Of a DNA stretch of 64,000 nt, positions 5,004 to 61,817 are shown one piece after another (position 1 is the first letter of the stretch; each line of letters starts with the position of its first letter). The notes beneath the pieces were generated by a model. It had not been told where the DNA came from. It did no database searches and saw only the letters and a program-made list of their open reading frames with translations. The stretch comes from Diadema setosum. Its lineage: Eukaryota > Echinodermata > Echinoidea > Diadematoida > Diadematidae. The DNA lies in contig CM067075.1 of assembly GCA_033980235.1 (NCBI GenBank), forward strand, positions 19,976,844 to 20,040,843, read 5' to 3'. The translations under genes and the position numbers were made by a program.

Positions 5004-5010
<7 letters not shown>

Positions 5011-6950: not shown

Positions 6951-7007
6951 ATCACCTTAACTCCTTGACCGTATTATAAATCTCAAGCCCATCCATGGGT
7001 TTTTAGT

Positions 7008-8085: not shown

Positions 8086-8140
8086 ATGTATTGTTCTGCC
8101 CTGGCTGTGCTCTATGTCGGAATTGTTCTCATTGTTCCTG
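8086..8140 (+). CDS. Exon 1: signal peptide
   Basis: It encodes 18 residues starting MYCSALAVLYV with a continuous hydrophobic core, followed by a strong donor, G|GTAAGT, in phase 1. That phase matches the next HYR exon, whose first codon is completed to Asp. The 11.4-kb gap to exon 2 means the link rests only on phase and on the need for a secretion signal. Confidence 0.55.
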
Positions 8141-17100: not shown

Positions 17101-20100
17101 CTTCTGAAATGTCTCCATGCTAAAGAGTCATTTGTTCGCTCAGCCCTCGCACGAAGATAATCTCTTTCACGTGACAAATCAATGAACTCCGGGGTAACCC
17201 ATGGTGTCTTTAACCCTCTTACTCTTAACGAAATAAAAGGAGCATGGGTATCACAGATCTCAGTAAAAGTGTTTCTCAATACTTTCCATCCTTCTTCCAA
17301 ATCCCCCTGTTTAACAACCGTATCCATACGGGCATCTAAGAGTGCCTTGCAAAAAGCATCTACATTCAAACGCTTGAAAGCCCGTGTATGCACAATCCTG
17401 GGAGGTAATTTTGGTCTATAATGCTTACATACTACATATATGAGCTTGTGGTCACTCAACCCGTGCGTTACAACATTTTTTTCACACACATTTGCAGGTC
17501 GGTTAGTTAAAACAAGATCAATAAGTGTAGAAGAGTTCTCAGTTACTCTTGTCGCTTGCTCAATCACCTGATGCAAATTATATTGATTACATAACTGTTT
17601 AACTATCCGAGATTCTCTCTTCGTGAACATATCATAATTGAAATCACCAAGTATATAACACTCGAGACCGGTATGCGTGGCCTGGGCTATGCTATCAACT
17701 ATACATTCATGATATCGTGTGTCTGATTTAGGAGGACGATAATATGTACCAATCAGTATGGGTTTCATATTGGTGATTTTCAGTTCTATCCACAAACATT
17801 CAATATCAGGGTGCTCAAAATCACATTTCCGTTTGTATGCAATCGCATTGGAAACGTAGACTGCCACACCGCCTCCGCGACGGTTCCGGTCCCTTCTTTC
17901 TACTGAAAATCCTTCAAATTGTATTTCTGCATCAATGATAGTGTTATCCAAATGGGTTTCAGAGAAGGACAAAACATCAAAGGGATTATTCACAAATTTT
18001 TCCCTGATGTGGTCACATTTTGGAAACAAACTGCAAATGTTTACATGTGCTAATTTCAATCCCCTACAGTGTATGTTAACAGAGAAACTAGCATCAGTCA
18101 AATGTTCAGTGAGTTCATTGTCGTCATCGCCTTGAAGGTGATTACAAACAGTTGTCTCTTCATTCTGGTCTGAAGAGCGGTGACCCCTGATGGTAGATGA
18201 CCTGAATGATTTGTTTGTTTCTCCCCGTTCAGGTGATGCCTGCAATCGTGGACAAAAAGGCAAGTTGTTGTTGTGATATTCAAATGTTCCATACTCTTTC
18301 CCCCTCCCGATAGGTATGTAAAAAGAAGAATTCGAGAAAATTATTACAGATTAACAGGCAACCCTGAAATCCATAAAAGGTTTATACTTGTAGTCTAAAG
18401 GGCAAGAATCTAAAGGTGCACATCTAAATGCTCAGTATGTGTGAGACGAATACCAGATCCTCGTCTCAAAATGGCTAACCCAAAGACGAATTATTGCTGT
18501 AAAATATAGATATGATTAGTTACCTCTGGAACCCCTCTGGTTAAAATCAAGGATAGATAAAGTGATTAAAATTTAAACTTCAATGCCTCTTTATTCGTTT
18601 TCATGATAATTACGATATAATATATCATAGACATAATTTCCTGTCTTACATGTCTGTCATGCAATGTCCGCATTGTTTTGAATTACTTTGAATTCAAATT
18701 GAACAATTAAGAAAGGCTACTTTTTCGCATTTATTACTTCAGAAGTCCACAAAATACAATCGCAACTTTTTCGTAGTGTCTTTTATGCTTCAAAACATTA
18801 AGAAGTACTCCACGTATACGGGCGGAGGCGTCTTTACTATAACCGCCTGATAATGTAACAAATAACAAGTGAAATAGAGTAATTATAGTCCCACTAGGAA
18901 ACGGTCAGATCTCCACCATCATCTTTCAAGCAATCAAGGACAAAAACAATTTATTCCTTGAAAACGGTGGAAACTTTATAATTCTAATCATATGTAATGG
19001 CGTAAAACAACAGTGAAAGTAATGCATTAAAGGGGATGGCTAGTAACTGATCAGTGGGAATCAGTGGGAATTATGGTGGGGGATGATTGTTCCAATCCTT
19101 GTGGGATTCATTAAAGAGTACATTATGTATCTATTGTTGTGTGAAAATTATTTGCTTCAGAATGGTCTCATATTCAAGTAATGTGCAGTTTAATGTTTCC
19201 AGGTTAGCATGCCTGTACAGAGACTGGGTGATTAAACTGTACATGACCTGAATATGAGACCATTCTGAAGCAAATGATTTTCACACAACAATAGATACAT
19301 AATGTACTCTTAAATGAATCCCACAAGGATTGGAACAATCATCCCCCAGCATTCCCACTGATTCCCACTGATCAGTTACTAGCCATCCCCTTTAATAAGT
19401 TTGGATCGGCATACATAACAAGTTGGTTTGGGTCTAATTATTATCAATTATTATGTATGCATGTCTCTTTATATTCATAGGTTTACGTTATGCATGTAAT
19501 ATGTAAATAATCTTTTAAAAATACATAGACAGAAATCCACCGACATTCTCGCCGCCCTGTCCCAGAAGTCTGGGAACAAAGTATGCATCGTCTGCTCCAC
19601 TGGTCGTAAGATGGACGGACCCTAGGGCTGAGGACGACAGGGGGACACCTACTGTGAGGCAAGTTTATGTTTACAGTTTGTTATTCCGAACGTTCATTGT
19701 TTTCTTAATTCCGAACGTTAGCTACGACACACCTTTATTTGTTTTGTTTTTTTTCGCTGAAGGCCCCCCCCTTTTTTTTTTGCTTGTTAGCTCATGAAAC
19801 CCGGAAGTGCCCCCCCCCCCACTTTTGAAAACATGGCGCCGGCGGTGCCGGTGTTAACATTTGATATAAGTTCGGACGGATATATATATTTATATATATA
19901 TACATAGGCCTTTCATTTTTTTACAGATTCAATTCAAATCAAATTTGCCATAGTGGAACAACACTCATGGAAAATAAGTGGTTTCCATTTTTTTTTTTTT
20001 TTTTTTCAGGCGAACATCTGGAAAAGCTTCTGGATCGTCGTTTCAAGTCGGTAACCACGTGATCACCTACCGGGCTTCAGACCCAGCGGGAAACACTGCA

Positions 20101-20303
20101 GATTGTCAGGTCACCTTCCGTGTTGCACGTAAGACTATAATGAAATGCCACATAAGATTCATTGTTTTTCTTGTATTCCGATAAGCTGTAGTACTATATA
20201 TATAACCGCGAATACTTCCTTGAGCCAGTACTATGTCTACACTATTATTACATTATTATTGTTATTATTATTATTATTACTATTGTTTTTATTATTATTA
20301 CTA

Positions 20304-20353
<50 letters not shown>

Positions 20354-29055: not shown

Positions 29056-29106
<51 letters not shown>

Positions 29107-29125
29107 TACTACTATTATTACCATC

Positions 29126-29156
<31 letters not shown>

Positions 29157-50100: not shown

Positions 50101-53100
50101 AATTTATAGGTTTTGGATATTAATTGAGGTCTAAAATGACTGGCATTGAACATCTCTGCCCTACTTTGGCAAAAGGAAGCAAGTGACAAAAGTGACATTT
50201 TTCGTAAAAGAGCAAAATGTGTCTGTCATTTACACTGACGTCAATGGACTATCATGATGTCTTATCTAATATATCTCTTAATAGGATGAGTGTTTCTGCA
50301 TGAAATTTGGCCTGGAAGAAGAGCTCATTATGTGAATTTTGAAAACACCAATAACTCAGATTTGGATGGTATGTCACTTGCTTCCTTTTGCCAAAGTAGG
50401 GCAGATCTGTAGTCACATGCTTACTTCATGAATCATTTACGCATGAATGACAGGTATTGTTCCTTTGGAATAATATCCTCTACCCTCTTCTGCTTTTCAT
50501 CTTGAAGACAGTGCATGCTTTCATCCATTCTCACATTCACTTAGTATAAATATTATTCTTCCATTATGACAGACTGTCACGGGCAAATTGTAGATAGGAC
50601 ATTGACTGTGAATTTGATTGATTCTTTTAATGAGTAATTTGATTTACAGAAAAGAAAACAATTTCAAAATATTTGGAATTTGGCTTTTAAATGAATTAGA
50701 GCTCGGTTGCAGCGCCCTCTCACGACCGTTCGCTGAACTTCAATCGAATCCTGAGTATTGCTTTGGGTCTGGTAAAGTGCCCACCGGAACCACTTGTACC
50801 TTTAGCTGCAAACCTGACCTGACCTTCCTAGGTGATCATCAACCTTTGACCTGCTTATCTTCTGGTGACTGGAGTGACGAATTTAACCTCCTTTCTCTGG
50901 AATGCAAAGGTAATGTTTATTTGTTTCTTTTTATTAATACCAGACAGTTTTGCTCCAGCTTTAGTTCATAATAGATATTTTTTATGTGTTACAGAGTTTC
51001 CATAATCAGTATGGTATTCTATGCAGTATGCAACACTATTGACTGTACTGTTTCTGCCCAAGTTTGACCAAACATTTGAGCCACGGTTCCTTTTAGTTCT
51101 CAAGTAATGCATGTACTCTTCGGCCTACTTACAGAACTTCTTACAGCAATATCCGACTCAGCAATAGCAACTATGTTTGCAAGATTTAAAAATATTAATA
51201 TTTGATAATTACATTTTATGACAAATGGGGAAATATTGTCGAAAAATAATGTGTTTTCTAGCGAATTCCTGGTGTAAAGCTAGTGTTTCTCTTACCCCGA
51301 TTTGATCCAGGTTTTTCTTTTGCGACATAATGCTCGAAGTATGGTTGGGTGTTCATAATATCGGACACCTAACGTTTTTTTATCAATAGAAACGTGAAAA
51401 ATCTCACAATTTGCCTGAAATTTTACTCACGTGTGGAGAAAATACTCCGGATTCACAAGCGCGCACTGAAAATGCGATCTGAGGTACGCGCTCTAGATGG
51501 CGGCTTCGAACGCGTGGGGTGTCATTTTTTCCGCACTCAGTTGCCGGGCTCATATCGACCGACCACCCCGCCCTCTATTGACAATACGTATAAAGCGTAC
51601 TTAAACGCGTTTTTTCGACAAGCTGCTGTTTTTTTCTAGTCGTAATTTTTTTCCCCAATAATATTTGAATATATTTTGAATCCTTCGATATTACTTTTGA
51701 AGGACTGTTTGATGAATTTGACTTGATTTTCATTAGGAAACTTTTCATCGTAATTGAAATAAATTAGATGAGTCGGTTTGTTTTTTCACATTCATTTCTC
51801 GTTTCTGCATCAACTCGTACGGTCGTAGCGGGCGACAAAATGTTTATGTCATGTGTATGTGTAACGTGTGTGCACGATCGTACAAGCGGCGGTGACAATT
51901 TTGCGGTCAAAATCGTCAAATTTATTACGGAAGGATACTCTACATCTAACAACGAGTTAGCAAAAGTAGGCCTAGTTATATGTAACGTTAGTTACACGAT
52001 AAACCTTATTCGATTTTGCTAAATTTCGGTAATTTAGAGGGAATACTTAGTTGTTTTCGCCACATTTTACTCGGTAGCGTAGCCCAGTGAAGAATCGAAC
52101 ACCGTTGCGCGTAGTCCCATGCGTACATTTTCTTTCTGTACGCGCAATGCCATTATAATGCGCGGTCGGTCGTTATGGACCCGGTCGGTGGGTTGGACCC
52201 CTACCATACTTTGTTTTTTCTGTCTGCTGTTACTTCTTCCATTTTACTATTTCCTTTTCTGTCTATTTTGTCCTCTTCTTCTTCTCTTTCTCTTCCCCAC
52301 TTTTTGTAGTGTGTGTATGTTCTTTTTTCCTGTGGATTATGACATAAAAACATACCGTTATTTTCGTTTTTTGTGTATCATTAAAGATGCATGTCAAATC
52401 TCAATAATTATATCGTATATTTTATTGACAAATCGTTTTACTCGAATTGAATTTTGTCAAAACGCAGACACCGAGGCTCCGTACATCACCTCTTGCCCTA
52501 CTGAGCCAATCACCGCCATTCGAACAGAGATTTGGGGAGTTCAGGTGACCTTTGACCCACCCACTGCTGAAGATAAGGTCACTACGGAGCTAAGGGTCAC
52601 TACCTACCCACCTGACCTAGGTTCACCCTATAACTTTACCTCCGACACGACTTGCCGCTACACATTCAGCGATTCAGCCAACAACAGCGCATCCTGTGAT
52701 TTTGACGTGTCGGTCACAAGTAAGACTGGCTCTCATATATGTCTCCTCTTTATACAGCTGATCATCTTCATTCATTGGCACATCGAGAAATGTGAATCTT
52801 TTTACACTTCTGTATAATTACAGTTAGCGAAGTCCTTGGGACGGGCAGTTTTCTTTCGTTACATCGAAATTTCGTTATTACCGTGTTCGTTATAACAGGA
52901 GTGCGCTGTATAATTCTGATCACGTCCGCTATGACCGCAGGGCAGCGTGATTTCATAGCTGATTGTAACGTATTACGATGTATATCGATTATGGCGTTAT
53001 CCATCAGAAAGTGTAATATTCATTTCACAGCAAGACATTCTCAGATCTTTATCTAAACTAGGCGCCTAATTTTTTTCTAAGTGCTTGTCATCAGGTTTAT

Positions 53101-56100: not shown

Positions 56101-57387
56101 TGTTCTACGAAGGACATAGTTCCATGGTTCTACCAAGGAGGTTGTTATGGGATGTGGGGTGTACGTGGGTTGCTGGGTGCTGGGTGTTTCTTTCATTAAC
56201 AGTTGCCACGGAACTTTTTAATTCTACTTCTTCAAGTTCAGATCGCATTTGGTGCACGCAACCACCAGCTTGCAGACAGTTATCAGTTCACCGACGATTT
56301 GTGCACGCGTACACCAACGCACACAGACACACACATACACACAACACACATCTCTGTTTGAACACACGCAGAACTATGAAAACTTCAATAAAATCGAGGT
56401 TTCGCTGCCCTGCCTAATGAATATTCATGATGTAATCTCTCGTTTTGCTATATACGAAAAAAAAAAAAAAAAGGCCAGGGAGTTTTCTTTCGTTACAGCC
56501 GCACAAATAAGTATATGAAATATAATTACAGATAATAATTTTTGGACCTAACTATGAACTTGGTTGTAACGAAAATTCATCGTTATATCCGTGTCAGATG
56601 AAACTGGTATGCACTGTATGCAAATTTTGAATGTGGTATCTCTCTGTACCGCGAACCTCTACCGAGTGTATACTGTTAAAGAACGGTTGTATTTCAAATT
56701 GTCATTGCACGACCAAAAAAAAAAAACAACATAAAAATGTATTATATTAAAATTTCCACATGAGGCAAGGGCGGATCCAGAAATTTCGTAAAGGGAAGGC
56801 GCCTTTACAAAATATACCAGTTCGTAATTCCACTTTGCGTATGAGCAGAAAAAGGTCATTTGTACCAACAGGCATTTTGGTTTGTAAATTCACTGAGATA
56901 AGCATCTGTGATGCGATGATTATTCACGTGATCCTTATCTAAATGGTGCTTGCTAATGCCAGCACATCCACCTGACAGCGAGAATGGTATTTCACAATAT
57001 GAAAGGAAATAGACTGTTATTGCATTCTTTATTGCATTCAATACAAAACAATGAAATGGATGCCTGCTAAATTGTCAACTGATGGAGTATTCTGAGCTCA
57101 CGACATTCTTTGAACATGAATTCAATAAATTGTTACGTCGGGCAAGCTTATGTATTATGCCGCTTTGAGAACGAGTGAAGTGCCTAACCAACTGAGAAAA
57201 AAGAAAGGTCATTTGTTCCAATGTGTACATAGCTAATTACGAACTGGCTTATCAAAGGGGAGCGCACGCGCCCCATTTTTCTTTTTTATTTCTTTTGTTT
57301 TAACAAAAAAGTAAAGAGGGGGCGCGCGCCCGGTGCGCCCCCTCTGGATCCGCCACTGTGACTCGGCCAACTTTACAGCAGTGAAGA

Positions 57388-57429
<42 letters not shown>

Positions 57430-57493
57430 GTCTGTAAGCATGTGTGATTATTTGCTGTTACTACGATGTCCTTGCTGCGAAAAGAAGAGACTG

Positions 57494-57540
<47 letters not shown>

Positions 57541-60302
57541 GTTTTGTTTTTTCCGGAGGATAGGATTGTAGTTAACCAAGATTTATTCATGATGGTTGCG
57601 TGTGATTTGCAATTGTTGTACCCTATTAAAGTTTCTCTGAAATATAATTGCACGAAAATGTTACTAAGAACAAAATCTTAGACACATTAGTTCACAAAAT
57701 AGGCCATTAATAATGGGCGTACTTTCACCAGTAAGCTTCAATACCCCGATGCAGGCAAGCGCGTGGCTTCCCGCCTGAACCTCCCGTTGGATGTCATGTA
57801 CTTCGACGGTGACTGCTCGAACAAAGACGGGCTGAGAGAAGCATTCATTGCGATATTCCGCGAGAGCAGCTTCGCCGGCCTGTGTGCAGTGGGCTATGAT
57901 TGCACGGTAGATCAGGTTTCGATATCCTGTGGGCCTATCGATAGTAGGAGAAAGAGATCGATCCTGGCAGAAAAAGGACTGGACAGCCACGATAGTGACG
58001 TCATCAACACAGCTACCGTGTCGATTGTGAGTTTCTAGGGCTGGAGATAATCTCTGAAAGTGAGATACAAGGCCTATGATTCCCCCCGTTTATTTGGTAA
58101 TCAGAATTAACGGCAGTTACAGTAACTCCAAGAACATTATAAAGCCGCAAAGGATAACAAAGAAATAAAGAATTTGATTGTAAAAGGGGTTAAACGCCAA
58201 TATAAACATTTCAAAGTACATTCATCATTATATAGAGCAAAATAAAACATTCCCAGTGATACCTCACTTGTATCATAAAAAAGAGATATCATTGAAGTTA
58301 TGATTTAAGATATTCAATATTTGTGTTTTTTTCATATTTCTCGGTTTTAAGGAGCTTTAACCTCAAATATCTCAAGTTGTCAACAGCAATGGAATTAACT
58401 CATTCTGCTATCAAGCTCTTCATTTACTAGGAATTGTCTCACTGAGAAGAGACGGATGGCATCTCATTTCAGAGTACCATGTCATCTATGAAATCAAATA
58501 TGTGTAATCATGATAATAAAAAAAAAACCCACTGACAACAGTTGGCAGGCCGTACACTTGCATTCTTTTCCCACTGAGATAGCAGTGTTCCACCTGTCCT
58601 CATTTTCATCAAAATGTGTCTGCTGCAGGTGGTTGGAGTGAACCCAAACAACTCTCTACCTGGCAACCCGTCGAGCCTGCGGGCTTCAACGATGGTCAAA
58701 GACATTACGGCACACGTACAGCAGCGTACTGAAGAACTCTTCAGTCAGACTGGCGAGGCACAAGGGACTGGGCGATATCGAACATCCCTCCGTTTTGGGC
58801 CACCTAGCATTGAGTGCGATTATGGCTATGTAGCAGACAACGACAAGCATATTTGCAGTAAATATGGATTTTCATTCTTGGTTTTTATCAGAATTGATTC
58901 TGGTTTGTATTCGTGAAACCATAATGATTTTTGATAATTATGTTAATAGAGTCATTGTTATGGGGGTTAAGACTTCAGCAAATATACAAATACATATGCA
59001 TCAGTTGGTTTTCAAAACAGATTGAAACTGGCGTAATGTTAATTTTTCATCCGTTTAGAATGAAAATGGCCACAGTTTATTGCATGTATGCCGAAATGAA
59101 AAACTTTAGTCAATACACTGAATGAACACAGCGATTTATATGAAAATATCAACATTTTACAGAAATTAACCAAGAATGAAGAATGGAAATTAACCGTTTG
59201 CAGTAGACTTACAGAAGTTGAGTACAATGGACTCGAAAAAGATTTGGAATCAAAACAAATTCAAGTAAATTCAAGGCATTTTGTGGGTTCTTTCAGTTGC
59301 ATGCCCCTCAGGTTACTTTGCTCAGCTAAAGACTAACGAGTGCGCCCTATGTGGGAGAGGTTTCTACCAAGACGAAGAGGGTCAGACTGAGTGCAAAAGT
59401 TGTCCAGTAGGAACGACGACAGCTAAACAGGGAGCTAGTGACATCAGCCAGTGTGAAGGTGAGAAAAAATCGAAGAACACTGAACGGGGCACGATAGGAC
59501 ACTATCATGAGCAGACATTCCGTGATGCGACACAAAATGAGGACACTAAACGCTTAAACCCTTGTGTGTGTAAAATGTTTAAGACTAGAGAATACGCCAG
59601 TTCGGGACTCCACTTTCGGCAAGAGCACAAAAAGATTTTTGTACCAACAGGGCATTTTGGTTTTTTAAATTCACCGAGATAAGCTTATGTGATTTTATGA
59701 TTATTCAAGTAATCCTTACAAATGGTGCTTGCCAGCACATCCACCTGACAGCAAAATAGGTAATTTGGCAATGAAAAATACTGTATTAAAACAATGTAAA
59801 ACATTCAACGCATTTAATGGAAACTTTCCCGCGTGTTCATTGATTGATTTTTCTGGTCACATGTTTTGTCTACGTTTGTTCATTTTTTGTTTGTTTGAAC
59901 ATGACTGATGAATTCTATAAATTGTTAAGTAGACCAAGTTCATGCATTCTGTCACTCTGAAAACGAGTGAAGTGCCTAACCAACTGAGAAAAAAGAAAGG
60001 TCATTTGTACGCATGTGCACATGAGCTAACTCTGAACTGGCTTATTTCAATTATGTGTTATTTTTGAACTTTTAATGATTCCATGGTCTTGTTTGATATG
60101 GCCTTGTCATTGTGTGAGAAAAAAAAGACTTATCAAGAGGTAAGTGCAAGTGATCATTCCTTGAGATGAATCTGTTTCACGATAATTGCTGTATTATATG
60201 TAAATGACAGTTTTAATATTTCACATTCATCTCATCGATTTACATGTATTTATTTACCGTCACTTCAGCGATCGCGTCATAGTGAGTGGACAGCTTGTTT
60301 GA

Positions 60303-60339
<37 letters not shown>

Positions 60340-61649
60340 CTCTCTCTCTCTCTTCTACTTTCTCTCCCCCTCCAGTTCCATGTCAAGCTGGTACCTACTC
60401 AGTGACGGGTTTTGCACCCTGCTTCATGTGCAAGAAGGGCTGGTATCAGCCAATCACAGGCCAGTCTGAATGCAGGGCGTGTCCTGATGGCATGACGACA
60501 CCTCACCTGGGCGCCGTGTCGCCTGACACCTGTAGAGGTAAGTACTAAAAGCCTTGATGTGTTGGGAAGAACAAAGAAAACACCACCACCACCATCATCA
60601 TCGTCGACAACAACAACAGCAACGAACGCAAACGAATAGACAAACAAGCAAAACAAATGAAATAATCCAAAGCGTTTACAATTATGCCATGAGAAACATT
60701 ACATTGGTTATGAAGACGTTAAAATGGCAGACAATGAACATGTAAAATAATAGTTGAAACATTATGAATGAACCAAGGTGCTATGGCTACAGTACGCTAT
60801 GTTCGTCTTGGATCAGTACGTGGATGGTCTCTTTTTTATGGCTAGAGTTGGATATCGATTCAGTATGTATAGTATGTTAATTATGTTTTACATGTTTATG
60901 GCCAACATATGCAATCATGTTACCTGGTATTCTATTTGAATCTTACAGATTGAGATCAAAAGCTCTTATTTATATTTTTTTTTGCCGAATTGTTTATCTT
61001 GGAATGACTGTTTACTTCCGTGAAGATCAGTTCAGCAATGAATGGTCATACGTAATAGTTCGCTCATACTTTCGCAATTTAGAATGGCAAGTGTAATTTC
61101 CATTATGCACGGTCATGGATGACTTTGTATGTTTTATTAAACTCGTGAACTATGTAACTTATAACAGTAAGTAGTTCATCTCTTTTTCATTGTGGAGAAC
61201 AGTTTCCTTCGTAACCTTTACTTGGGCAAGGTTTTTGTTTTCATCAGGTACTCCAAAGGCCCGAGAACAACTGAAGCAAAGTATTTGTTCTACGTTGTAT
61301 AAACGCGCTCCGTACAAAAGACTTTTGTCATACCCCCTTCCCCGTGTTGAGGTCTTGTTCTGAGCATAAATAGCAACGCAAAGCTCGTTTTGATCTACGG
61401 TTACTTGATCTTAGTGTTATATTCGCGATTTTTCTTTCTTCCTTCCCATTAATTGATCTTGAGGTTTGTTTTTTTCTCTCTCATTGTGGTGTCACCTTCT
61501 GAGCTAACCTATACGATCTCCGTGCTCAGCACACCATCAATGTGGTATAATATGCAGATTAACCTAACTAAGTAAATTAGCTCAACCGATGGTCTATTTT
61601 AATACTTACAATACTAATACATAACCTGTCCTGTATCCCAGAACCTTGA
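8086..61649 (+). CDS. Secreted CCP/HYR/GCC2-GCC3 mosaic protein, 33 exons (gene-level entry)
   Basis: This is the whole-gene span; exons are listed separately. The joined exons give 1,930 codons: signal peptide (1-18), seven HYR domains, sixteen CCP domains, a two-exon module with RRKR at residues 1718-1721 (residues 1654-1821), two GCC2/GCC3 repeats (1821-1929), then TGA. Almost every domain boundary is a phase-1 intron, the pattern expected of shuffled extracellular modules. CCP and HYR modules bind proteins or carbohydrates in complement, adhesion and matrix proteins, and their combination with GCC2/GCC3 repeats recalls SVEP1/polydom. A role in adhesion or humoral recognition is inference. 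No transmembrane segment is seen after the signal peptide, so secretion is likely. Introns hold most of the mobile elements listed here. Weakest points: the link of exon 1 to exon 2 across 11.4 kb, the HYR3 joint, and the 3' end. It could also be two genes read as one. Confidence 0.7.
8172..9160. mobile_element. 989-bp TA-flanked inverted-repeat transposon (Tc1/mariner-like MITE)
   Basis: The ends CACTCAGCAAAAAA and TTTTTTGCTGAGTG are reverse complements and are flanked by TA on both sides, the target duplication of the Tc1/mariner group. Complementarity extends inwards (AAGTAAACACTTTTTC against its mirror near 9130, and further in). There is no transposase frame, so it is non-autonomous. It sits 31 bp after the exon 1 donor. 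Confidence 0.8.
9202..9242. repeat. (TG)n microsatellite
   Basis: About 40 bp of GT repeats with one CG interruption. Confidence 0.9.
9331..9570. repeat. Inverted array of ~20-bp 'gagtcatacagccca' units
   Basis: Units close to GAGTCATACAGCCCA repeat in the left half; the right half carries their reverse complements (TGGGCTGTATGACT). The outer parts also match (ACGAGTTCGAC against GTCGAACTCGT). The region would fold into a long imperfect hairpin. Confidence 0.65.
9985..12130. repeat. GC-homopolymer composite tandem repeat
   Basis: Diverged units of roughly 110-300 bp recur. Each has a core near TGCACCAGATCGCTGAATTT, a stretch like AACGCAAAAGCTCC, then a pyrimidine block such as CCCCCTCCCACACCCTCCCC. 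Three longer, closer units start near 11336, 11562 and 11841 (GTGGGACTGTTTCA...). GGCGTAGCC near the left edge and GGCTACGCC near the right edge, each beside a long G run, are mirror images. No credible coding frame despite many open frames through the poly-C runs. Confidence 0.7.
12338..13030. mobile_element. 693-bp MITE, TGTGACC termini, complete copy
   Basis: It starts TGTGACCCTGCACCTCAAAA and ends with the near reverse complement, TTTTGAGGTGCACGGTCACA, flanked by TATA on both sides. There is no open frame of note. A second, highly similar copy starts at 63316 and runs off the window end. Confidence 0.85.
13050..13352 (+). mobile_element. Probable LINE 3' UTR remnant with (AATTG)n tail
   Basis: An AT-rich stretch ends in AATAAA followed by ATTGAATTGAATTGG, the microsatellite-type tail seen in CR1/L2-like elements. 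No coding part remains. The left limit is a guess. Confidence 0.4.
13353..14007. other. Intron 1 stretch, nothing recognised
   Basis: AT-rich DNA between the LINE tail remnant and the 3' end of the minus-strand LINE. I see no exon-like motif on either strand. Confidence 0.45.
14008..18480 (-). mobile_element. Near-complete CR1/L2/Jockey-group LINE in intron 1
   Basis: On the minus strand a 1,006-codon EN-RT frame (separate entry) is followed by a 3' UTR of about 1.2 kb. The element ends in GGGGCTACCCTGTTGAAAA, then AATAAATAAATAAA, the short-microsatellite tail usual for CR1/L2-type elements instead of poly-A. Its 5' limit is unclear but cannot pass about 18484, where the intragenic duplication begins. 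I did not identify an ORF1; a short frame at 18098-18292 upstream of the EN-RT start could be its end or part of the same protein. It lies antisense to the host gene. Confidence 0.85.
15243..18263 (-). CDS. LINE endonuclease-reverse transcriptase (1,006 aa)
   Basis: The frame is uninterrupted. Residues about 70-285 form an APE-type endonuclease: SETHL at 101-105 with the catalytic Glu, RRGGGVAVYV near 128-137, GDFNYD at 206-211 and LSDHK at 269-273. Residues about 500-860 form the reverse transcriptase: NNYRPIS at 570-576, QQSGFRKGYST near 606-616, FLDIRKAFDSVDH at 641-653, SGVPQGSILGP at 698-708 and the catalytic YADD at 730-733, followed by KYLGVWLD. Together they nick target DNA and copy the element RNA. 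The intact catalytic set suggests recent activity. The start codon chosen is the first Met of this frame; the true start may lie upstream if the frame is linked to the short ORF ending near 18098. Confidence 0.93.
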   Translation of the reverse strand: MPFCPRLQASPERGETNKSFRSSTIRGHRSSDQNEETTVCNHLQGDDDNELTEHLTDASFSVNIHCRGLKLAHVNICSLFPKCDHIREKFVNNPFDVLSFSETHLDNTIIDAEIQFEGFSVERRDRNRRGGGVAVYVSNAIAYKRKCDFEHPDIECLWIELKITNMKPILIGTYYRPPKSDTRYHECIVDSIAQATHTGLECYILGDFNYDMFTKRESRIVKQLCNQYNLHQVIEQATRVTENSSTLIDLVLTNRPANVCEKNVVTHGLSDHKLIYVVCKHYRPKLPPRIVHTRAFKRLNVDAFCKALLDARMDTVVKQGDLEEGWKVLRNTFTEICDTHAPFISLRVRGLKTPWVTPEFIDLSRERDYLRARAERTNDSLAWRHFRSCRNHVNNLRTTLKKEYCQYQIVSNKNNPTQLWKVLKSLSPTSTYSVPSSISRNGCCETDLLKVADAFNRYFVSIGSELVAKFSSAETRVVHGDNHHSVIPGNFAFVNVDESFVMKELQSIRTDKSTGLDGISARLLKLAAPLVSKPLTDLFNRSLGSGVIPQEWKLATVTPIHKGGDKDSVNNYRPISIIPTIMKVLEKAVHTQLHDYLADLDLLTPQQSGFRKGYSTNTVLIYVSDYVFRNMDSGKLTGLVFLDIRKAFDSVDHGLLLHKLRTYGIGDNAISWFKSYLIGRKQSTMIQGKTSDTLALKSGVPQGSILGPLLFTLFVNDLPSVVKHSKIVLYADDTAIMYSASSPKELETVLNDDLRRVESWLNSNRLTLNTEKTKFLLVGTPQRVNGIKEKIDIQIESVSIEHVKTVKYLGVWLDQHLTWNEHVAQVSAKIASRLALLRRVRKYLTVESAKLLANALILPYYDYCSSVWTNSSQRIKDILIKQHKQTARIVLQTNTRTSTNEMFTRLKWIDMEKRWKFQKGKLMFDILNDSAPVYLQSMFSAAMSVHRYSTRNAQSRGLVVPKVKTESGRKAFSFEGAILWNSFPSEVRNAQTKQTFCTQFLKSRQY
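19027..19395. mobile_element. Foldback MITE with TTAA ends
   Basis: The 369-bp element begins TTAAAGGGGATGGCTAG and ends CTAGCCATCCCCTTTAA. Arms of about 150 bp are almost fully complementary (for example GAATGGTCTCATATTCA against TGAATATGAGACCATTC). The TTAA ends suggest a piggyBac-like TTAA target. The paralogous site near 28380-28390 in copy 2 is empty. Confidence 0.88.
19529..19658 (+). CDS. Exon 2: HYR1, N-terminal half
   Basis: Residues 19-62. It opens DRNPPTF with a CP pair and continues to VVRWTDPRAEDDRGTPTV, the classic first half of a HYR domain. It enters in phase 1 and leaves in phase 2. The donor is AG|GCAAGT, a GC donor; no GT alternative keeps the frame. Confidence 0.85.
20010..20128 (+). 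CDS. Exon 3: HYR1, C-terminal half
   Basis: Residues 62-102: SSFQVGNHVITYRASDPAGN, then ADCQVTFRVA, the canonical HYR ending (VTYxAxDxxGN...C.F.V). A strong poly-T acceptor precedes it and GTAAGA follows. It differs from exon 7 at only two of 119 bases. Confidence 0.9.
20233..20390. repeat. (ATT)n microsatellite, copy 1
   Basis: An ATT-rich trinucleotide tract in the intron after exon 3. The matching tract in copy 2 is at 29050-29262. Confidence 0.9.
20785..20985. mobile_element. Foldback insert with TTAGGG-like core
   Basis: The arms AGGGCACTACCCCCGAGGGC and GTAATTGCCCAGGGGGTAAG are complementary around a core of degenerate TTAGGG/TTAGGTT units (about 20829-20940). Copy 2 lacks the whole block at the equivalent site near 29660, so it is an insertion. 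Confidence 0.75.
21560..24575 (-). mobile_element. 5'-truncated LINE inserted in copy 1
   Basis: On the minus strand the element ends in AATAAAG...TTGACTTG followed by a poly-A tail (poly-T at about 21561-21573 on the plus strand). Its 5' end falls inside the endonuclease domain, just before a TDHYPI motif at about 24530. The paralogous copy 2 runs straight through (near 30250), showing the pre-insertion state. Confidence 0.88.
22488..24560 (-). pseudogene. Broken LINE reverse transcriptase
   Basis: Reading on the minus strand through several frame breaks, I see: TDHYPIMTHF (end of endonuclease), an EN-RT linker, KVIPLFKKGDKSEVSNYRPI and NSQFGFREKLNTTHAL (23454-23813), DFSKAFDTVDHDILLYKL and GVPQGS (23190-23393), an out-of-frame FADDTSVFF (about 23080-23110), and the C-terminal LQKKALRVISY...LLKIKDLYLF (22488-22802). 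Stops and shifts between blocks make it non-functional. Confidence 0.85.
25809..25997 (+). CDS. Exon 4: CCP1 (sushi)
   Basis: Residues 102-165, phase 1 to 1. CPRLSSPNNGVVSC, then CTYQC, RQC and YWGGTSPSC give six cysteines and the conserved Trp. It is paralogous to exon 8 in copy 2, lacking the two extra codons that exon 8 carries before GYWGG. Confidence 0.9.
26895..27080 (+). CDS. Exon 5: CCP2 (sushi)
   Basis: Residues 165-227. It reads RCSSLSAPTHGSMTC, CTFSC, STC and SWSNSGTAVSC, with donor G|GTGAGT. The acceptor ATCTTAAG is weak, but it is the only one that preserves both phase and the first Cys. The exon lies in the unique spacer between the two duplication copies. Confidence 0.82.
27081..27854. 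other. Intron, no exon-like motif
   Basis: AT-rich intronic DNA between CCP2 and duplication copy 2, with a short ATAATCATCATGATGATAAT-type simple tract near 27778-27825. No domain motif seen. Confidence 0.5.
28523..28652 (+). CDS. Exon 6: HYR2, N-terminal half
   Basis: Residues 227-270. It starts DVNPPTF and ends AEDNTGTPTV, closer to the HYR consensus than exon 2. It has the same 130-nt length and the same non-canonical donor AG|GCAAGT as exon 2. Confidence 0.86.
28816..28934 (+). CDS. Exon 7: HYR2, C-terminal half
   Basis: Residues 270-310. Differences from exon 3 are one silent change at the splice-junction Arg codon and one Arg-to-Gln change (YRAS to YQAS). Acceptor TTTTTCAG, donor C|GTAAGA. 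Confidence 0.9.
29050..29262. repeat. (ATT)n/(ATC)n microsatellite, copy 2
   Basis: A trinucleotide tract mixing ATT, ACT and ATC units, at the position corresponding to the tract at 20233-20390. Confidence 0.9.
30770..30860. repeat. Poly-C ... poly-G low-complexity block
   Basis: A run of C followed about 70 bp later by a run of G, with A/C-rich sequence between. The two runs could pair. Confidence 0.6.
31304..31376 (-). tRNA. tRNA-Ala(AGC)-like sequence, probably a pseudogene
   Basis: On the minus strand: A-box TAGCTCAGTCGGTAGAGC with a perfect four-pair D stem; anticodon loop CTAGCAA (anticodon AGC) on a stem with four of five pairs; a five-base variable loop; B-box GGTTCGAATCC with a perfect five-pair T stem. 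The acceptor stem pairs at only five of seven positions, the two outermost being mismatched. A TTTT run follows a few bases downstream, as for Pol III termination. It lies in a block absent from duplication copy 1, so it arrived after the duplication or was lost from copy 1. It may be a tRNA-derived SINE head. Confidence 0.6.
31601..31795 (+). CDS. Exon 8: CCP3 (sushi)
   Basis: Residues 310-375. It reads CPRLSSPNNGAVSC, CTYQC and YWGGTSPSC. Relative to exon 4 there is a two-codon insertion (Ser-Gly) before GRSDGYW, and replacements Met/Ile, Val/Ala, Tyr/Phe, Ala/Ile, Asn/Ser and Ala/Val, alongside about six silent changes. Confidence 0.9.
32436..33190 (+). mobile_element. Intron with probable LINE 3' tail ending in (CAAT)n
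   Basis: The last 290 bp or so (about 32900-33190) read like a retroelement 3' UTR: AT-rich, AAATAAAGGAGAGTCCTATG, then CAATCAATCAATCAGTCAGT. The 5' part of the interval shows nothing recognisable. Confidence 0.35.
33291..33482 (+). CDS. Exon 9: CCP4 (sushi)
   Basis: Residues 375-439. It reads QCPSVS, CRLGC, YELIGNSELTC and TWAQDIPSC; donor C|GTACGA. It is not closely similar to CCP2, so it is not the missing partner of exon 5 in duplication copy 2. Confidence 0.88.
33928..34499. mobile_element. 572-bp MITE with TTAAAGGACAAG ends
   Basis: It begins TTAAAGGACAAGTTCACC and ends with the exact reverse complement. Complementary arms extend for more than 100 bp (CCTTATGGTAATGAAGG, TCTACTAATATTGC, TTTCCTCAAACTTTCA against their mirrors). 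TTAA edges as at 19027-19395, but the internal sequence differs. Confidence 0.85.
34643..34837 (+). CDS. Exon 10: CCP5 (sushi)
   Basis: Residues 439-504. It reads QCTKLSESTGL, a second Cys in SPECPEG, CQYTC, LTC and TWAGEVPTC; donor G|GTGGGT. Confidence 0.88.
34838..35696. other. Intron, nothing recognised
   Basis: AT-rich intronic DNA. Its open frames carry no extracellular-domain motif. Confidence 0.5.
35697..35790 (+). repeat. Direct repeat, left copy
   Basis: From TATAACAATGCCATATTTCG to TTCACCTAAT. It is near-identical to 36711-36824, which carries about 20 additional bases near its middle. Confidence 0.85.
35871..36021. repeat. Near-perfect 151-bp palindrome
   Basis: Arms of about 68 bp with only two mismatches flank a 13-bp loop (ACTTGATCCGCGC). 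Core arm motifs are TAGACGCGCGGACGTTC and TGAGCGTGCGCAGTA with their mirrors. It lies between two direct repeats. It looks like a young foldback element or hairpin-forming insertion. Confidence 0.9.
36711..36824 (+). repeat. Direct repeat, right copy
   Basis: From TATAATAATGCCATATTTCG to TTCACCTAAT; partner of 35697-35790. The roughly 920 bp between them holds the palindrome and a GC-rich block near 36020-36120. Confidence 0.85.
37017..37223 (+). CDS. Exon 11: CCP6 (sushi)
   Basis: Residues 504-573. It reads SCEVSELPVPEHAELRGC, CTMAC, MRC and VWSGALLTC. One of the longer CCP exons (207 nt), with an acidic DDGDNDETG insert before the conserved Trp. Acceptor TTTTCTAG. Confidence 0.88.
37224..37780. 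other. Intron, nothing recognised
   Basis: No repeat structure or exon motif seen. Confidence 0.5.
37781..37987 (+). CDS. Exon 12: CCP7 (sushi)
   Basis: Residues 573-642. It reads DCPAPLSPANGIVEGC, CSFGC, RSC and EWDGEPVMC; donor G|GTACCT. Confidence 0.9.
38534..38580. repeat. (CAAA)n microsatellite
   Basis: About 47 bp of CAAA repeats in the intron between CCP7 and HYR3. Poly-G (38495-38508) and poly-C (38765-38785) runs flank it at a distance. Confidence 0.9.
38881..38984 (+). CDS. Exon 13: HYR3, N-terminal part
   Basis: Residues 642-676. It reads DVTPPLLECPRDRKYW, then IPWDEWEPLM, followed by ATG|GTAACT. It leaves in phase 0, unlike the phase-2 splits of HYR1, HYR2 and HYR4, and about ten residues earlier in the domain. 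Confidence 0.72.
38985..39977. other. Intron with poly-T/poly-G block
   Basis: A T run turning directly into a G run lies at about 39431-39470. Otherwise no recognisable element or exon. Confidence 0.5.
39978..40146 (+). CDS. Exon 14: HYR3, C-terminal part
   Basis: Residues 677-733. It begins ATDLGAPLV, completing the P..ATD motif begun in exon 13, and continues EEGAHTVVYRAIDGSGNVAT, then CSFTIRIG. Acceptor CCCGACAG in phase 0, donor G|GTCAGC in phase 1. Confidence 0.78.
40330..40618 (+). mobile_element. Probable LINE/SINE 3' tail ending in (AAATG)n
   Basis: It contains GGGACCTGCGGCTCTATATA, an AT-rich 3' UTR-like stretch, AATAAA and the pentamer tail AAATGAAATGAAATGAAA. No coding part. The left limit is approximate. 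Confidence 0.45.
40856..41065 (+). CDS. Exon 15: CCP8 (sushi)
   Basis: Residues 733-803. It reads RCPPWQAPSNVNVFGSC, CLATC, KSC and FWYGPDIAC; donor A|GTAAAT. Confidence 0.88.
41275..41470 (+). mobile_element. Probable LINE 3' tail ending in (AATCA)n
   Basis: An AT-rich tract followed by AATAAATCAAATCAAATCAA. Similar tails in reverse complement occur at 42781-42806 and 61980-62012. Confidence 0.45.
42247..42432 (+). CDS. Exon 16: CCP9 (sushi)
   Basis: Residues 803-865. It reads RCPLPSAINGFSSDC, CKFQC, RSC and FSGQDFQC. The conserved Trp before the last Cys is replaced by Phe (FTFSG). Acceptor TTCTACAG. Confidence 0.87.
42433..43456. other. Intron, only a short (TTTGA)n tract
   Basis: TTTGATTTGATTTGATTTGA at about 42781-42806 is probably the reversed tail of a retroelement. 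No exon-like motif. Confidence 0.5.
43457..43654 (+). CDS. Exon 17: CCP10 (sushi)
   Basis: Residues 865-931. It reads TCQAGFDIDHGSTTPTEC, CSFSC, LLC and VWNELVTPYC; acceptor CTCCCCAG, donor G|GTAATC. Confidence 0.9.
43655..44516. other. Intron, nothing recognised
   Basis: An open frame runs from 44301 across the next acceptor, but in a different frame from HYR4 and without domain motifs. Confidence 0.45.
44517..44652 (+). CDS. Exon 18: HYR4, N-terminal half
   Basis: Residues 931-976. It reads DIQAPSFDMECPHVINV, then GYTEPVARDNSGLNITTR. Phase 1 to 2, split at the same point as HYR1 and HYR2 but with an ordinary GT donor (CG|GTAATC). Confidence 0.86.
45279..45400 (+). CDS. Exon 19: HYR4, C-terminal half
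   Basis: Residues 976-1017. It reads EGVTTITYEATDPSGLSS, then RCDVRINV, ending G|GTTCGT. The GN of the usual D..GN motif is GL here. Confidence 0.86.
45779..45824. repeat. (CA)n-(CG)n alternating purine-pyrimidine tract
   Basis: ACACAC turning into GCGCGC, a sequence able to adopt Z-DNA. Confidence 0.85.
45859..46010. mobile_element. Foldback MITE, GGGGGCATTT / TGTCGGACAA family, second copy
   Basis: Begins AGGGGGGCATTTCATGAAGG and ends with the exact reverse complement. It contains AACTTGTCGGATAAAATATC-type palindromes, as at 3450-3587. Confidence 0.85.
46265..46453 (+). CDS. Exon 20: CCP11 (sushi)
   Basis: Residues 1017-1080. It reads RCPSLHSPIHGSMDGC, CKFSC, VSC and IWDSALPMC. The acceptor is CCAG at 46264; the TTTAG a few bases later would break phase and lose residues. 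Confidence 0.88.
46918..47103 (+). CDS. Exon 21: CCP12 (sushi)
   Basis: Residues 1080-1142. It reads MCPQLVVHAPASLSGC, CAFSC, VLC and TWTSEDIKC; a strong pyrimidine acceptor and C|GTAAGT donor. Confidence 0.9.
47104..47794. other. Intron, nothing recognised
   Basis: AT-rich, with a short duplicated TAGAATTATAGAATTATAGA near 47500-47520. Confidence 0.45.
47795..47995 (+). CDS. Exon 22: CCP13 (sushi)
   Basis: Residues 1142-1209. It reads ACPPLIETYDV, PSTC, CHLNC, VTC and TWSRDVAEATC; donor G|GTTAGT. Confidence 0.88.
48165..48246. repeat. 'CGTTATAACG' dispersed repeat, copy A
   Basis: Contains TTCGGTTATAACGAGAGAAA, ACTGCCAGTCCCGAGG, CGTTATAAAG and GTGCACTGTA. Related blocks are at 52826-52916 and 56478-56622. 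Confidence 0.6.
48247..49043. other. Intron, nothing recognised but (TTTG)n
   Basis: A (GTTT)n run at about 48993-49020 lies just before the HYR5 acceptor. No other structure seen. Confidence 0.45.
49044..49283 (+). CDS. Exon 23: HYR5, unsplit
   Basis: Residues 1209-1289. It reads DIAPPTFTNCPERVVMY, then VSWTVAAEDNSETQPTVTC, GQHHVSCTAIDERHNDN and QCLFEVDV. A whole HYR domain in one phase-1 exon, with two additional cysteines (VTC, VSC) beyond the usual pair. Confidence 0.88.
49715..49903 (+). CDS. Exon 24: CCP14 (sushi)
   Basis: Residues 1289-1352. It reads RCLALIPPQYGFIDGSC, CHVSC, VSC and YWKYVDKPVC. Confidence 0.88.
50156..50404. mobile_element. 249-bp hairpin MITE
   Basis: Perfect terminal inverted repeats of about 33 bp: starts CTGCCCTACTTTGGCAAAAG and ends with its exact reverse complement. 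No coding capacity. Confidence 0.85.
50700..50909 (+). CDS. Exon 25: CCP15 (sushi)
   Basis: Residues 1352-1422. It reads GCSALSRPFAELQ, EYC, CTFSC, LTC and DWSDEFNLLSLEC. The acceptor, GAATTAG, has a poor pyrimidine tract, but no other AG fits the phase. Confidence 0.84.
51400..52210. other. CpG-rich intronic block
   Basis: Unlike the AT-rich introns around it, this interval has many CG dinucleotides (near 51455-51620 and 52060-52200). Nearby TACGCGCAATGC and GTTGCGCGTAGT are partly complementary. No exon motif within it. It could be a repeat remnant or a regulatory island. Confidence 0.4.
52468..52719 (+). CDS. Exon 26: HYR6, unsplit
   Basis: Residues 1422-1506. It reads DTEAPYITSCPTEPITA, then VQVTFDPPTAEDKVTTELRV, TCRYTFSDSANNSA and SCDFDVSV. 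One extra Cys (TTC) but no visible partner for it in this domain. Its frame is open upstream to an ATG at 52119. Confidence 0.88.
52826..52916. repeat. 'CGTTATAACG' dispersed repeat, copy B
   Basis: Contains GACGGGCAGTTTTCTTTCGT, AATTTCGTTATTACC, TCGTTATAACAGGAG and GTGCGCTGTA, collinear with copy A. Confidence 0.6.
53325..53640. repeat. Degenerate 'TTCGTTATTCCGAAG' array
   Basis: Units such as GGTTCGTTATTCCGAAGATT recur in direct orientation and then inverted (CTTCGGAATAACGAA). Single units also occur in the introns after exons 2 and 6 (19680-19730 and 28670-28730). Confidence 0.65.
53678..53923 (+). CDS. Exon 27: HYR7, unsplit
   Basis: Residues 1506-1588. It reads DEVTPEITYCPPGRNITT, then VFWEKPTYLDVPDIELQV, FC, LGDHQIVCYVVNPESQL and ECTTDISL. 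Two added cysteines (VFC, IVC) at positions like those of HYR5. The D..GN motif has decayed. It follows HYR6 directly, the only adjacent HYR pair. Confidence 0.86.
53924..54627. other. Intron, nothing recognised
   Basis: A/T-rich with short A and T runs; no motif. Confidence 0.45.
54628..54825 (+). CDS. Exon 28: CCP16 (sushi)
   Basis: Residues 1588-1654. It reads ECIPLQPPRNGFLAC, CSVLC, YVC and SWLPSNKVPDC. The last CCP; a proline/serine-rich PPPLSRSIP loop sits where other CCPs have GY. Confidence 0.87.
54863..55297. mobile_element. ~435-bp inverted-repeat element (hAT-like ends?)
   Basis: The ends AGGCTGCTTTCACATAGAAG and its reverse complement enclose TATTCGCTATTCG repeats on the left and CGAATACCCGAATAG on the right. 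The superfamily guess rests on the end sequence only; I see no clear target duplication. Confidence 0.75.
55700..56000 (-). mobile_element. Possible LINE C-terminal fragment
   Basis: The minus strand reads ARAGPYLGTSYLKLSII and ends FKPALKTHLFKTAF, resembling the last residues of many LINE reverse transcriptases. No catalytic motif nearby. Confidence 0.4.
56478..56622. repeat. 'CGTTATAACG' dispersed repeat, copy C (interrupted)
   Basis: GGGAGTTTTCTTTCGTTACA matches copies A and B, then about 65 unrelated bases, then GGTTGTAACGAAAATTCATC and a GCACTGTA end. Confidence 0.5.
56770..57354. mobile_element. ~585-bp MITE with GGCGGATCCAG ends
   Basis: It starts GGCGGATCCAG and ends CTGGATCCGCC, with GTAAAG and GC-rich blocks mirrored inside. 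Internal stretches (GTACCAACAGGCATTTTGG; CTAACCAACTGAGAAAAAAG) recur at 59571-60050. Confidence 0.8.
57390..57432. repeat. (TG)n microsatellite
   Basis: About 43 bp of GT repeats; a second run lies 60 bp downstream. Confidence 0.9.
57494..57538. repeat. (TG)n microsatellite
   Basis: About 45 bp of pure GT repeats. Confidence 0.9.
57755..58026 (+). CDS. Exon 29: module with furin-type site, part 1
   Basis: Residues 1654-1744. It has no CCP or HYR pattern. It reads GKRVASRLNLPLDVMYF, DGDCSNKDGLREAF, FAGLC, YDCTVDQVSISCGP, then SRRKRS (RRKR encoded at 57946-57957). It enters in phase 1 and leaves in phase 0 (ATT|GTGAGT), unlike neighbouring exons. I do not recognise a named domain. RRKR-Ser fits a proprotein-convertase cleavage site. 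Confidence 0.8.
58027..58628. other. Intron, nothing recognised
   Basis: AT-rich intronic DNA without repeat structure. Confidence 0.45.
58629..58857 (+). CDS. Exon 30: module with furin-type site, part 2
   Basis: Residues 1745-1821. VVGVNPNN follows the VINTATVSI end of exon 29, then a polar, probably helical stretch (KDITAHVQQRTEELFSQTG) and IECDYGYVADNDKHIC. Phase 0 in, phase 1 out. The cysteines at the end probably lead into the GCC2/GCC3 repeats. Confidence 0.8.
59297..59458 (+). CDS. Exon 31: GCC2/GCC3 (ephrin-receptor-like) repeat 1
   Basis: Residues 1821-1875. It reads ACPSGYFAQLKTNECALC, GRGFYQDEEGQTECKSC, PVGTTTAKQGASDISQC: six cysteines and the GxYQdexGqxxCxxCPxGTtT signature. 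The first of two intact, equal-length exons (162 nt). Confidence 0.92.
59571..60050. mobile_element. Fragment related to the 56770-57354 MITE
   Basis: Shares GTACCAACAGGGCATTTTGG, TTCACCGAGATAAGC, GTGCTTGCCAGCACATCC, AAGTGCCTAACCAACTGAG and GAACTGGCTTAT in the same order. The GGCGGATCCAG ends are missing. Confidence 0.65.
60303..60354. repeat. (CA)n-(CT)n microsatellite
   Basis: CA repeats turning into CT repeats. The pyrimidine part serves as the tract before the exon 32 acceptor. Confidence 0.9.
60376..60537 (+). CDS. Exon 32: GCC2/GCC3 repeat 2
   Basis: Residues 1875-1929. It reads PCQAGTYSVTGFAPCFMC, KKGWYQPITGQSECRAC, PDGMTTPHLGAVSPDTC. Six cysteines; acceptor CCTCCAG, donor G|GTAAGT. 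Confidence 0.92.
61642..61649 (+). CDS. Exon 33: terminal exon, stop at the first Cys position
   Basis: After acceptor TATCCCAG the frame reads Glu-Pro-TGA (stop at 61647-61649). In the two preceding repeats this third codon is the first conserved Cys (ACP, PCQ). So the protein appears to end here at residue 1930, unless this exon is skipped or read through. Confidence 0.6.
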
Positions 61650-61817
61650 GCAGCTGGTCACATATCACCCTCTGGCCTACAACCTTGCCAGCCGTGTCCG
61701 CGAGGTTTCTTCCAACCCAAGGCTAGGAAATGTAGCAGCTACACTACAACGCAGGCTGTAGGAGCGACCTCTTGCATAGAGTGTTACCCAGTTACTTCAC
61801 ACCTCAGTCTTGCTTAG
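61642..61817 (+). pseudogene. Degenerate third GCC2/GCC3 repeat
   Basis: Beyond the TGA the same frame continues AAGHISPSGLQPCQPC, PRGFFQPKARKCSSYTTTQA, VGATSCIEC and stops at TAG 61815-61817. The repeat signature is clear, but Cys1 is a stop, Cys5 is Tyr, and no donor follows the Cys6 region. It would serve as the terminal exon or 3' UTR. Confidence 0.75.

What the first reader, a model, noticed from the sequence alone, without database searches (positions are those of the whole stretch)
8086..61649. Large CCP/HYR/GCC2-GCC3 mosaic gene with 33 phase-consistent exons
Sixteen CCP and seven HYR domains, a cleavable two-exon module and terminal GCC2/GCC3 repeats assemble into one 1,930-codon frame. 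The exon sum is divisible by three, and phases match at every joint although each exon was called on its own motifs. The architecture resembles SVEP1/polydom without the VWA, EGF or pentraxin parts. It may be a lineage-specific recognition or adhesion protein.
Basis: partly seen in the sequence, partly recalled or inferred. Interest (0 to 1): 0.75.

Follow-up and report, generated by a model that had tools for sequence, protein, structure and literature searches.

The report
Shortened polydom-like gene, sea urchin
The window holds one large, apparently intact sea-urchin gene for a secreted chain of recognition domains, a relative of polydom/SVEP1 that lacks the receptor-binding tail of the vertebrate protein, and about 18 related loci lie in that genome.

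Summary
The 33 exons at 8086-61649 join to 5,793 nt: 1,930 codons plus TGA, no internal stop, 30 GT-AG and 2 GC-AG introns. The protein is collinear with a Diadema antillarum protein of the same domain order (45.7% of 1,912 residues identical). A second D. antillarum protein, the apparent ortholog (92%, exons 25-33 only), matches 8 of 8 joints, including the two-residue last exon 'EP-stop'. Assembly size points to Diadema setosum. No VWA, EGF or pentraxin part was found.

It belongs to the known Polydom-like/-related kind. Starfish and acorn-worm proteins share the domain order but continue into EGFs. The gene lies between two longer, mutually inverted paralogs with EGF and TSP1 parts. Its TGA stands at a conserved Cys of a third GCC repeat, whose remnant follows. 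In this genome 18 loci show a HYR6-like hit followed by GCC hits.

Best reading: a secreted, furin-cut recognition or matrix protein without polydom's receptor-binding half. Function is inferred; no transcript was mapped.

The parts
8086..8140 (+). exon 1: signal peptide (MYCSALAVLYVGIVLIV), ends phase 1
   Evidence: only exon in 1-19528 that met the test (ATG, hydrophobic core, phase-1 donor score 6 or more)
19529..19658 (+). exon 2: HYR1 first half; GC donor
20010..20128 (+). exon 3: HYR1 second half
25809..25997 (+). exon 4: CCP1
26895..27080 (+). exon 5: CCP2
28523..28652 (+). exon 6: HYR2 first half; GC donor; near-copy of exon 2
28816..28934 (+). exon 7: HYR2 second half; near-copy of exon 3
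31601..31795 (+). exon 8: CCP3; near-copy of exon 4
33291..33482 (+). exon 9: CCP4
34643..34837 (+). exon 10: CCP5
37017..37223 (+). exon 11: CCP6
37781..37987 (+). exon 12: CCP7
38881..38984 (+). exon 13: HYR3 first half
39978..40146 (+). exon 14: HYR3 second half
40856..41065 (+). exon 15: CCP8
42247..42432 (+). exon 16: CCP9
43457..43654 (+). exon 17: CCP10
44517..44652 (+). exon 18: HYR4 first half
45279..45400 (+). exon 19: HYR4 second half
46265..46453 (+). exon 20: CCP11
46918..47103 (+). exon 21: CCP12
47795..47995 (+). exon 22: CCP13
49044..49283 (+). exon 23: HYR5
49715..49903 (+). exon 24: CCP14
50700..50909 (+). exon 25: CCP15
   Evidence: the annotated D. antillarum P0196 starts here
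52468..52719 (+). exon 26: HYR6
   Evidence: joints match P0196
53678..53923 (+). exon 27: HYR7
   Evidence: joints match P0196
54628..54825 (+). exon 28: CCP16
   Evidence: joints match P0196
57755..58026 (+). exon 29: first half of the cleavable module, with RRKR (protein residues 1718-1721)
58629..58857 (+). exon 30: second half of the cleavable module
59297..59458 (+). exon 31: first GCC2/GCC3 (PF07699) repeat
60376..60537 (+). exon 32: second GCC2/GCC3 repeat
61642..61649 (+). exon 33: E-P-stop (TGA 61647-61649)
   Evidence: D. antillarum P0196 ends CREP, P0001 and P0195 end CREPV
61650..61784 (+). remnant of a third GCC repeat behind the stop; TGA stands where relatives have the first Cys, and a few residues are missing
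   Evidence: PF07699 29.7 bits, 31 bits in the whole-genome scan; by eye against R and P0108
18483..26333 (+). copy A of an internal segmental duplication (HYR1-CCP1 with introns)
27853..32135 (+). copy B of that duplication (HYR2-CCP3 with introns)

Best explanation
The gene encodes one secreted protein of about 200 kDa: a signal peptide, a rod of 7 HYR and 16 CCP domains, a module with a furin-type RRKR site, two GCC repeats, stop. Shown from sequence: the gene structure, the collinear relatives, the missing tail and the place in a gene family. Inferred: it is a shortened member of a long polydom-like family that keeps the half corresponding to 'Pol-N' of vertebrate polydom/SVEP1 and has lost the half corresponding to 'Pol-C', which carries the tested Tie1 binding. 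A proprotein convertase cuts the module during secretion into a 184-kDa rod and a 22-kDa stub. The halves may stay together, because two low-confidence models put the site between the two half-sandwiches of one fold. The product would act outside cells as a multivalent binding or matrix protein without a receptor-engaging tail: a structural part, a soluble recognition molecule, or a competitor of its full-length neighbours. The number of loci and the duplication inside the gene fit a protein whose binding array is being diversified.
For: Joined frame and splice sites. Collinear D. antillarum P0001 with the same domain order and 92% apparent ortholog P0196 with 8 of 8 joints. No VWA, EGF or pentraxin in the model. 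Flanking paralogs L (-) and R (+) hit the same core, three GCC repeats and EGF and TSP1 parts of relatives by tblastn; in R Pfam confirms EGF, TSP_1 and two PF07699 blocks; L and R align to each other in inverted orientation. TGA at the conserved Cys of the third GCC repeat. 18 loci with a HYR6-like hit followed by GCC hits. The module occurs in 46 stretches of 42 homologs; 31 of 46 contain R-X-K/R-R and all 46 a K/R-R pair somewhere in the stretch (the profile's seeds are among them). In 11 of 11 SVEP1-type proteins of 3.1-3.6 thousand residues the site reads RTKR, RAKR or RSKR, at residues 798-961. The N part of one of them, P0131, up to that site is 96.7 kDa without glycans, near the 115-kD Pol-N that secreted polydom yields; Tie1 bound Pol-C, not Pol-N (PMC10281526, passages read).
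Against: No transcript was mapped. NCBI's D. antillarum ortholog P0196 is annotated only from exon 25 on (592 aa); its first residues come from what is intron here, so no ortholog model of exons 1-24 was among the hits. That ortholog has WRKR instead of RRKR, a poorer furin site, and 15 of 46 modules lack R-X-K/R-R. Exon 1 is 11.4 kb from exon 2 and aligns poorly with P0001's longer N-terminus. The module's fold is low confidence (pLDDT 64.8 and 69.9), and in the second model the site lies in a short helix, not a loop. No data bear on binding partners.
Confidence: 0.58

Rival explanations
1. The 5' exons (1-24) and the 3' exons (25-33) are two transcription units; the 3' unit is a small CCP-HYR-HYR-CCP-module-GCC protein.
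For: The annotated D. antillarum ortholog P0196 begins at exon 25 with a start read from what is intron here. All units are phase 1, so phase gives no proof of joining.
Against: P0001, P0195, the starfish P0112 and the acorn-worm P0109 join the same kinds of unit in one protein; a signal-peptide exon fits at the 5' end (only 1-19528 was scanned for such exons, so a second one before exon 25 is not excluded).
Confidence: 0.12
2. The gene is the 5' part of a full-length SVEP1-like gene whose EGF exons lie beyond the window; the TGA exon is skipped or the base is wrong.
For: A recognisable third GCC remnant follows the stop; L and R do continue into EGFs.
Against: The D. antillarum ortholog ends at the same two residues. 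P0020, P0042 and P0009, whose EGFs hit both neighbours, gave no hit of any kind between 61 kb and 106 kb at E 0.001. The remnant also lacks residues and a Cys compared with P0108 (by eye).
Confidence: 0.06
3. The gene is on its way to being a pseudogene; the stop and the decayed exon mark loss of constraint.
For: Premature stop relative to relatives with a third GCC repeat; two GC donors.
Against: 1,930 codons without a stop and 32 usable introns; the 585-residue overlap with the ortholog is 92% identical with one 6-residue insertion and the same stop.
Confidence: 0.08
4. A complement-regulator-like protein: the CCP rod binds C3b-like fragments in coelomic fluid.
For: 16 CCP domains; sources name the D. 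antillarum paralogs 'complement receptor type 1-like' (P0195) and 'CUB and sushi domain-containing protein 3-like' (P0108).
Against: CCP, HYR and GCC are mixed as in polydom, not as in CCP-only regulators (recalled); those names look automatic.
Confidence: 0.12

Closest known systems
Diadema antillarum proteins: P0001 (1,965 aa, uncharacterized), its 96% copy P0195 (1,808 aa), and the apparent ortholog fragment P0196 (592 aa)
   Same: P0001: same order of 16 CCP, 7 HYR, module and two GCC repeats, ending CREPV. P0196: 92% identity over 585 residues, same last residues CREP.
   Different: P0001 is only 45.7% identical, too low (my inference) for an ortholog in a congener; P0196 is annotated only from exon 25.
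Nematostella 'Polydom-like' and 'Polydom-related' proteins (PMC12549020, passages read)
   Same: Core of Sushi, HYR and ephrin-receptor-like (TKE/GCC) domains without vWFA, pentraxin or Sushi tail; the shortest also lacks EGF; an expanded family.
   Different: Cnidarian. I saw no sequences and built no tree with them, so common descent of the short forms is untested.
SVEP1/Polydom of vertebrates
   Same: The stretch HYR-HYR-CCP-module-GCC repeats in this order, with a furin-type site in the module.
   Different: Has an N-terminal VWA, EGFs, pentraxin and a long CCP tail (PMC12549020 and PMC10281526, passages), none of which is here; only 3 CCP and 2 HYR before the last CCP of the core.
Long polydom-like proteins of starfish (P0112, 3,495 aa) and acorn worm (P0109, 3,398 aa), and the flanking paralogs L and R
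   Same: Nearly the same CCP/HYR series, module and GCC repeats.
   Different: P0112 and P0109 continue into a third GCC repeat and 23 and 21 EGF-like matches of a simple pattern. R has a third GCC repeat, EGFs, TSP_1 and a second GCC block by Pfam; L by tblastn and alignment to R. The window gene stops after two GCC repeats.
Thyroglobulin type-2 repeats and the domain before them

Membership tests
SVEP1/Polydom, canonical | HYR-HYR-CCP, interposed module, GCC repeats in this order | tested here: met
SVEP1/Polydom, canonical | N-terminal von Willebrand A domain | tested here: not met
   No VWA by Pfam in the model, in the + frames of intron 1 or in 1-8085; the VWA part of tick SVEP1 P0020 has no hit at E 0.001 in 334 kb
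SVEP1/Polydom, canonical | EGF array, pentraxin and CCP tail after the GCC repeats | tested here: not met
   Stop after the second GCC repeat, shared with the ortholog; the only domain in the + frames of 61650-64000 is the GCC remnant; no EGF hit up to 106 kb
SVEP1/Polydom, canonical | proteolytic cut on secretion | not testable with these tools
   RRKR present at residues 1718-1721; the cut itself needs protein
Polydom-related (core Sushi-HYR-TKE only, as described for Nematostella) | only Sushi, HYR and TKE/GCC domains | tested here: met
   the type is described in PMC12549020 (passages)
Polydom-related (core Sushi-HYR-TKE only, as described for Nematostella) | common descent with the cnidarian short forms | not tested
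   no Nematostella sequence used
SEA domain (module) | Pfam-detectable SEA sequence | tested here: not met
   no SEA hit in the model at E 0.01
SEA domain (module) | beta-alpha-beta-beta-alpha-beta sandwich with the cut between strands 2 and 3 (feature recalled) | tested here: inconclusive
Regulators of complement activation | CCP-only extracellular region (recalled) | tested here: not met
   7 HYR and 2 GCC units interleaved or appended
Hyalin | long uninterrupted HYR array (recalled) | tested here: not met
   HYR units are separated by CCP units except HYR6-HYR7

The most novel reading that the evidence does not exclude
Diadematoid urchins have turned polydom, a receptor-binding matrix protein, into a repertoire of short secreted binding rods by dropping the receptor-binding half and multiplying and reshuffling the HYR/CCP array, with a further exon dying in the window gene. 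The short forms would serve as soluble recognition molecules or natural antagonists of their full-length neighbours.
Probability: 0.25. Interest if true: 0.65.

Novelty: new member of a known kind. Interest (0 to 1): 0.42.

Why it matters
The short polydom-like proteins described in a sea anemone (PMC12549020, passages) are matched here by a short form in a sea urchin with visible surroundings: full-length copies on both sides, a stop at a conserved Cys, and the remnant of the lost repeat behind it. Because a receptor-binding part of polydom is known in vertebrates (PMC10281526), the pair of short and long genes would allow a direct test of what the N-terminal half does on its own. The conserved module, for which Pfam gave no family, is also a candidate site for the known cut of polydom.

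Tried and rejected

Caveats on my own tools: the CCP profile was trained on the exons it then scored. The third row of the GCC profile seed began with two letters that are not the window's translation, so its hit at 61653-61784 is not independent; the Pfam hits are. The local profile printed three G for the window model, but Pfam gives two stretches. L and R rows in the tree are pieces anchored to P0112, not full gene models, and P0195 and P0196 were not in the tree. EGF counts of P0109 and P0112 come from a simple pattern.

Full report
OBSERVATION. I rebuilt the gene from the DNA. Thirty-three exons between 8086 and 61649 join to 5,793 nt: 1,930 aa and a TGA, no internal stop, 30 GT-AG and 2 GC-AG introns. 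The two other frames of the 32-exon join have 54 and 102 stops. My profiles find 16 CCP and 7 HYR units on the + strand and nothing comparable on the - strand (best E 0.45-0.63). Pfam on the joined protein gives HYR (6 stretches), Sushi (10) and PF07699 (2, the GCC2/GCC3 family), three bacterial Ig-like families without a stretch that passes on its own (one, Big_13, one bit above its cut-off), and no VWA, EGF or pentraxin.

IS IT ONE GENE? Phase agreement is expected here, because every CCP, whole HYR and GCC unit is flanked by phase-1 introns. Better evidence comes from relatives. P0001, an uncharacterized protein of Diadema antillarum (1,965 aa), aligns from the first HYR to the last GCC with 874 of 1,912 aligned residues identical (45.7%) and the same unit order. 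P0196, also D. antillarum (592 aa), is identical at 539 of 585 aligned residues (92%) over exons 25-33, aligns without a gap at 8 of 8 joints and ends with the same CREP. Against this, P0196 starts at exon 25 with residues that are intron here, and no ortholog of exons 1-24 was among the hits of the protein searches, so a break before exon 25 is not excluded.

SPECIES. The window lies at G000:C17:19976844-20040843 in an assembly of 885,718,524 bases and 96 contigs; C17 is 36,396,193 long. The published D. setosum assembly has 885,842,048 bases in 101 scaffolds and a scaffold_17 of 36,404,119 (PMC11066563, passages). I take the species to be D. setosum; this is an inference from sizes and from the 92% match in a congener.

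SURROUNDINGS. In 334 kb around and including the window the gene lies between two paralogs: L on the - strand (about -21 to -84 kb) and R on the + strand (about 106 to 162 kb, window coordinates). Their collinear matched stretches (150 nt or more) are about 69-94% identical in DNA. Both hit the HYR/CCP series, the first half of the module, three GCC repeats, EGFs, TSP1 and a second GCC block of relatives by tblastn. In R, Pfam finds EGFs, three PF07699 repeats, TSP_1 and a second PF07699 block. The window gene has none of these beyond two GCC repeats. The TGA at 61647-61649 stands where R has the Cys of VCEAG and Diadema P0108 that of EPCPAG, the first Cys of the third GCC repeat. Behind it a remnant of that repeat still scores 29.7 bits with PF07699 but lacks several residues present in P0108. 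P0001 and P0195 end CREPV, close to the same spot; P0108 keeps the third repeat and ends after it.

FAMILY IN THE GENOME. A search of the own genome with HYR6 to GCC2 and with PF07699, paired by strand and distance, gives 18 loci with a HYR6-like hit and at least two GCC hits within 25 kb downstream: five at 19.5-20.1 Mb of C17 (the window gene, L, R and two more), eleven at 33.1-34.4 Mb of C17, one on C16 and one on C5. Three of the 21 HYR6-like hits, all on C8, had no GCC hit. By my reading, nine of the 18, the window gene among them, show no second GCC block of their own within 70 kb; for two of these nine I ascribe the distant GCC hits to the next gene. Undetected exons cannot be excluded.

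TREE. In a tree of 14 rows the window gene, P0001 and P0108 form one clade (100/100) and L and R another (100/100); the window gene next to P0108 has 89/87. Several outgroup branches are very long. So the shortened gene does not look like a recent copy of its neighbours.

N-TERMINAL DUPLICATION. 18483-26333 and 27853-32135 are copies; their matched blocks, introns included, are 76-89% alike, while the HYR exons differ at 6 of 243 nt and the CCP exons at 13 of 186 aligned nt. P0001 has the same HYR-CCP-CCP-HYR order, so the order itself is older; the near-identity here reflects a recent duplication or conversion.

COMPARISON. Canonical SVEP1/Polydom membership fails on the VWA, EGF and pentraxin features. 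[quoted passage not shown] The order of the N-terminal units is shared with starfish P0112 and nearly so with acorn-worm P0109, which continue into EGFs. I therefore call it a new member of a known kind, with an unusual shortened end and a large local family.

LIMITS. No RNA or protein data were used. Function beyond 'secreted, multi-domain, probably cut' is inference.

Noticed in passing
window 18483-26333 and 27853-32135: Segmental duplication inside the gene: HYR exons differ at 6 of 243 nt, matched blocks with introns are 76-89% alike; both copies carry the same GC donor in the HYR exon.
   Followed up: partly
window 13500-17999, - strand (intron 1): LINE-like element: reverse transcriptase (RVT_1, 140 bits) and endonuclease domains in one frame read with stops as X.
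   Followed up: no
window 12337-13022 and 63315-64000: Dispersed repeat, two copies 92-97% identical 51 kb apart, a partial third in the left flank.
   Followed up: no
window 8167-9165 and about -81.7 to -80.7 kb: A 1-kb element close behind exon 1 with an 86% copy in the left flank; the copy also matches it in reverse (68%), so it looks palindromic.
   Followed up: no
window 33959-34501: Inverted-repeat element with copies inside both flanking paralogs.
   Followed up: no
G000:C17:33.1-34.4 Mb: Cluster of 11 loci with a HYR6-like hit followed by GCC hits.
   Followed up: partly
G000:C10:18.6-19.0 Mb and 34.7-35.3 Mb: Two dense groups of PF07699 (GCC) hits without HYR6-like hits among those scored: perhaps another multiplied gene family.
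   Followed up: no
G000:C9:9.39-9.44 Mb, C3:30.73-30.76 Mb, C14:27.97-28.00 Mb: Tandem groups of Sushi (CCP) hits; on C9 some lie in open frames over 1,000 aa.
   Followed up: no
D. antillarum P0196 versus window exon 29: The furin-type site RRKR of the window gene reads WRKR in the ortholog, so cleavage may differ between congeners.
   Followed up: no
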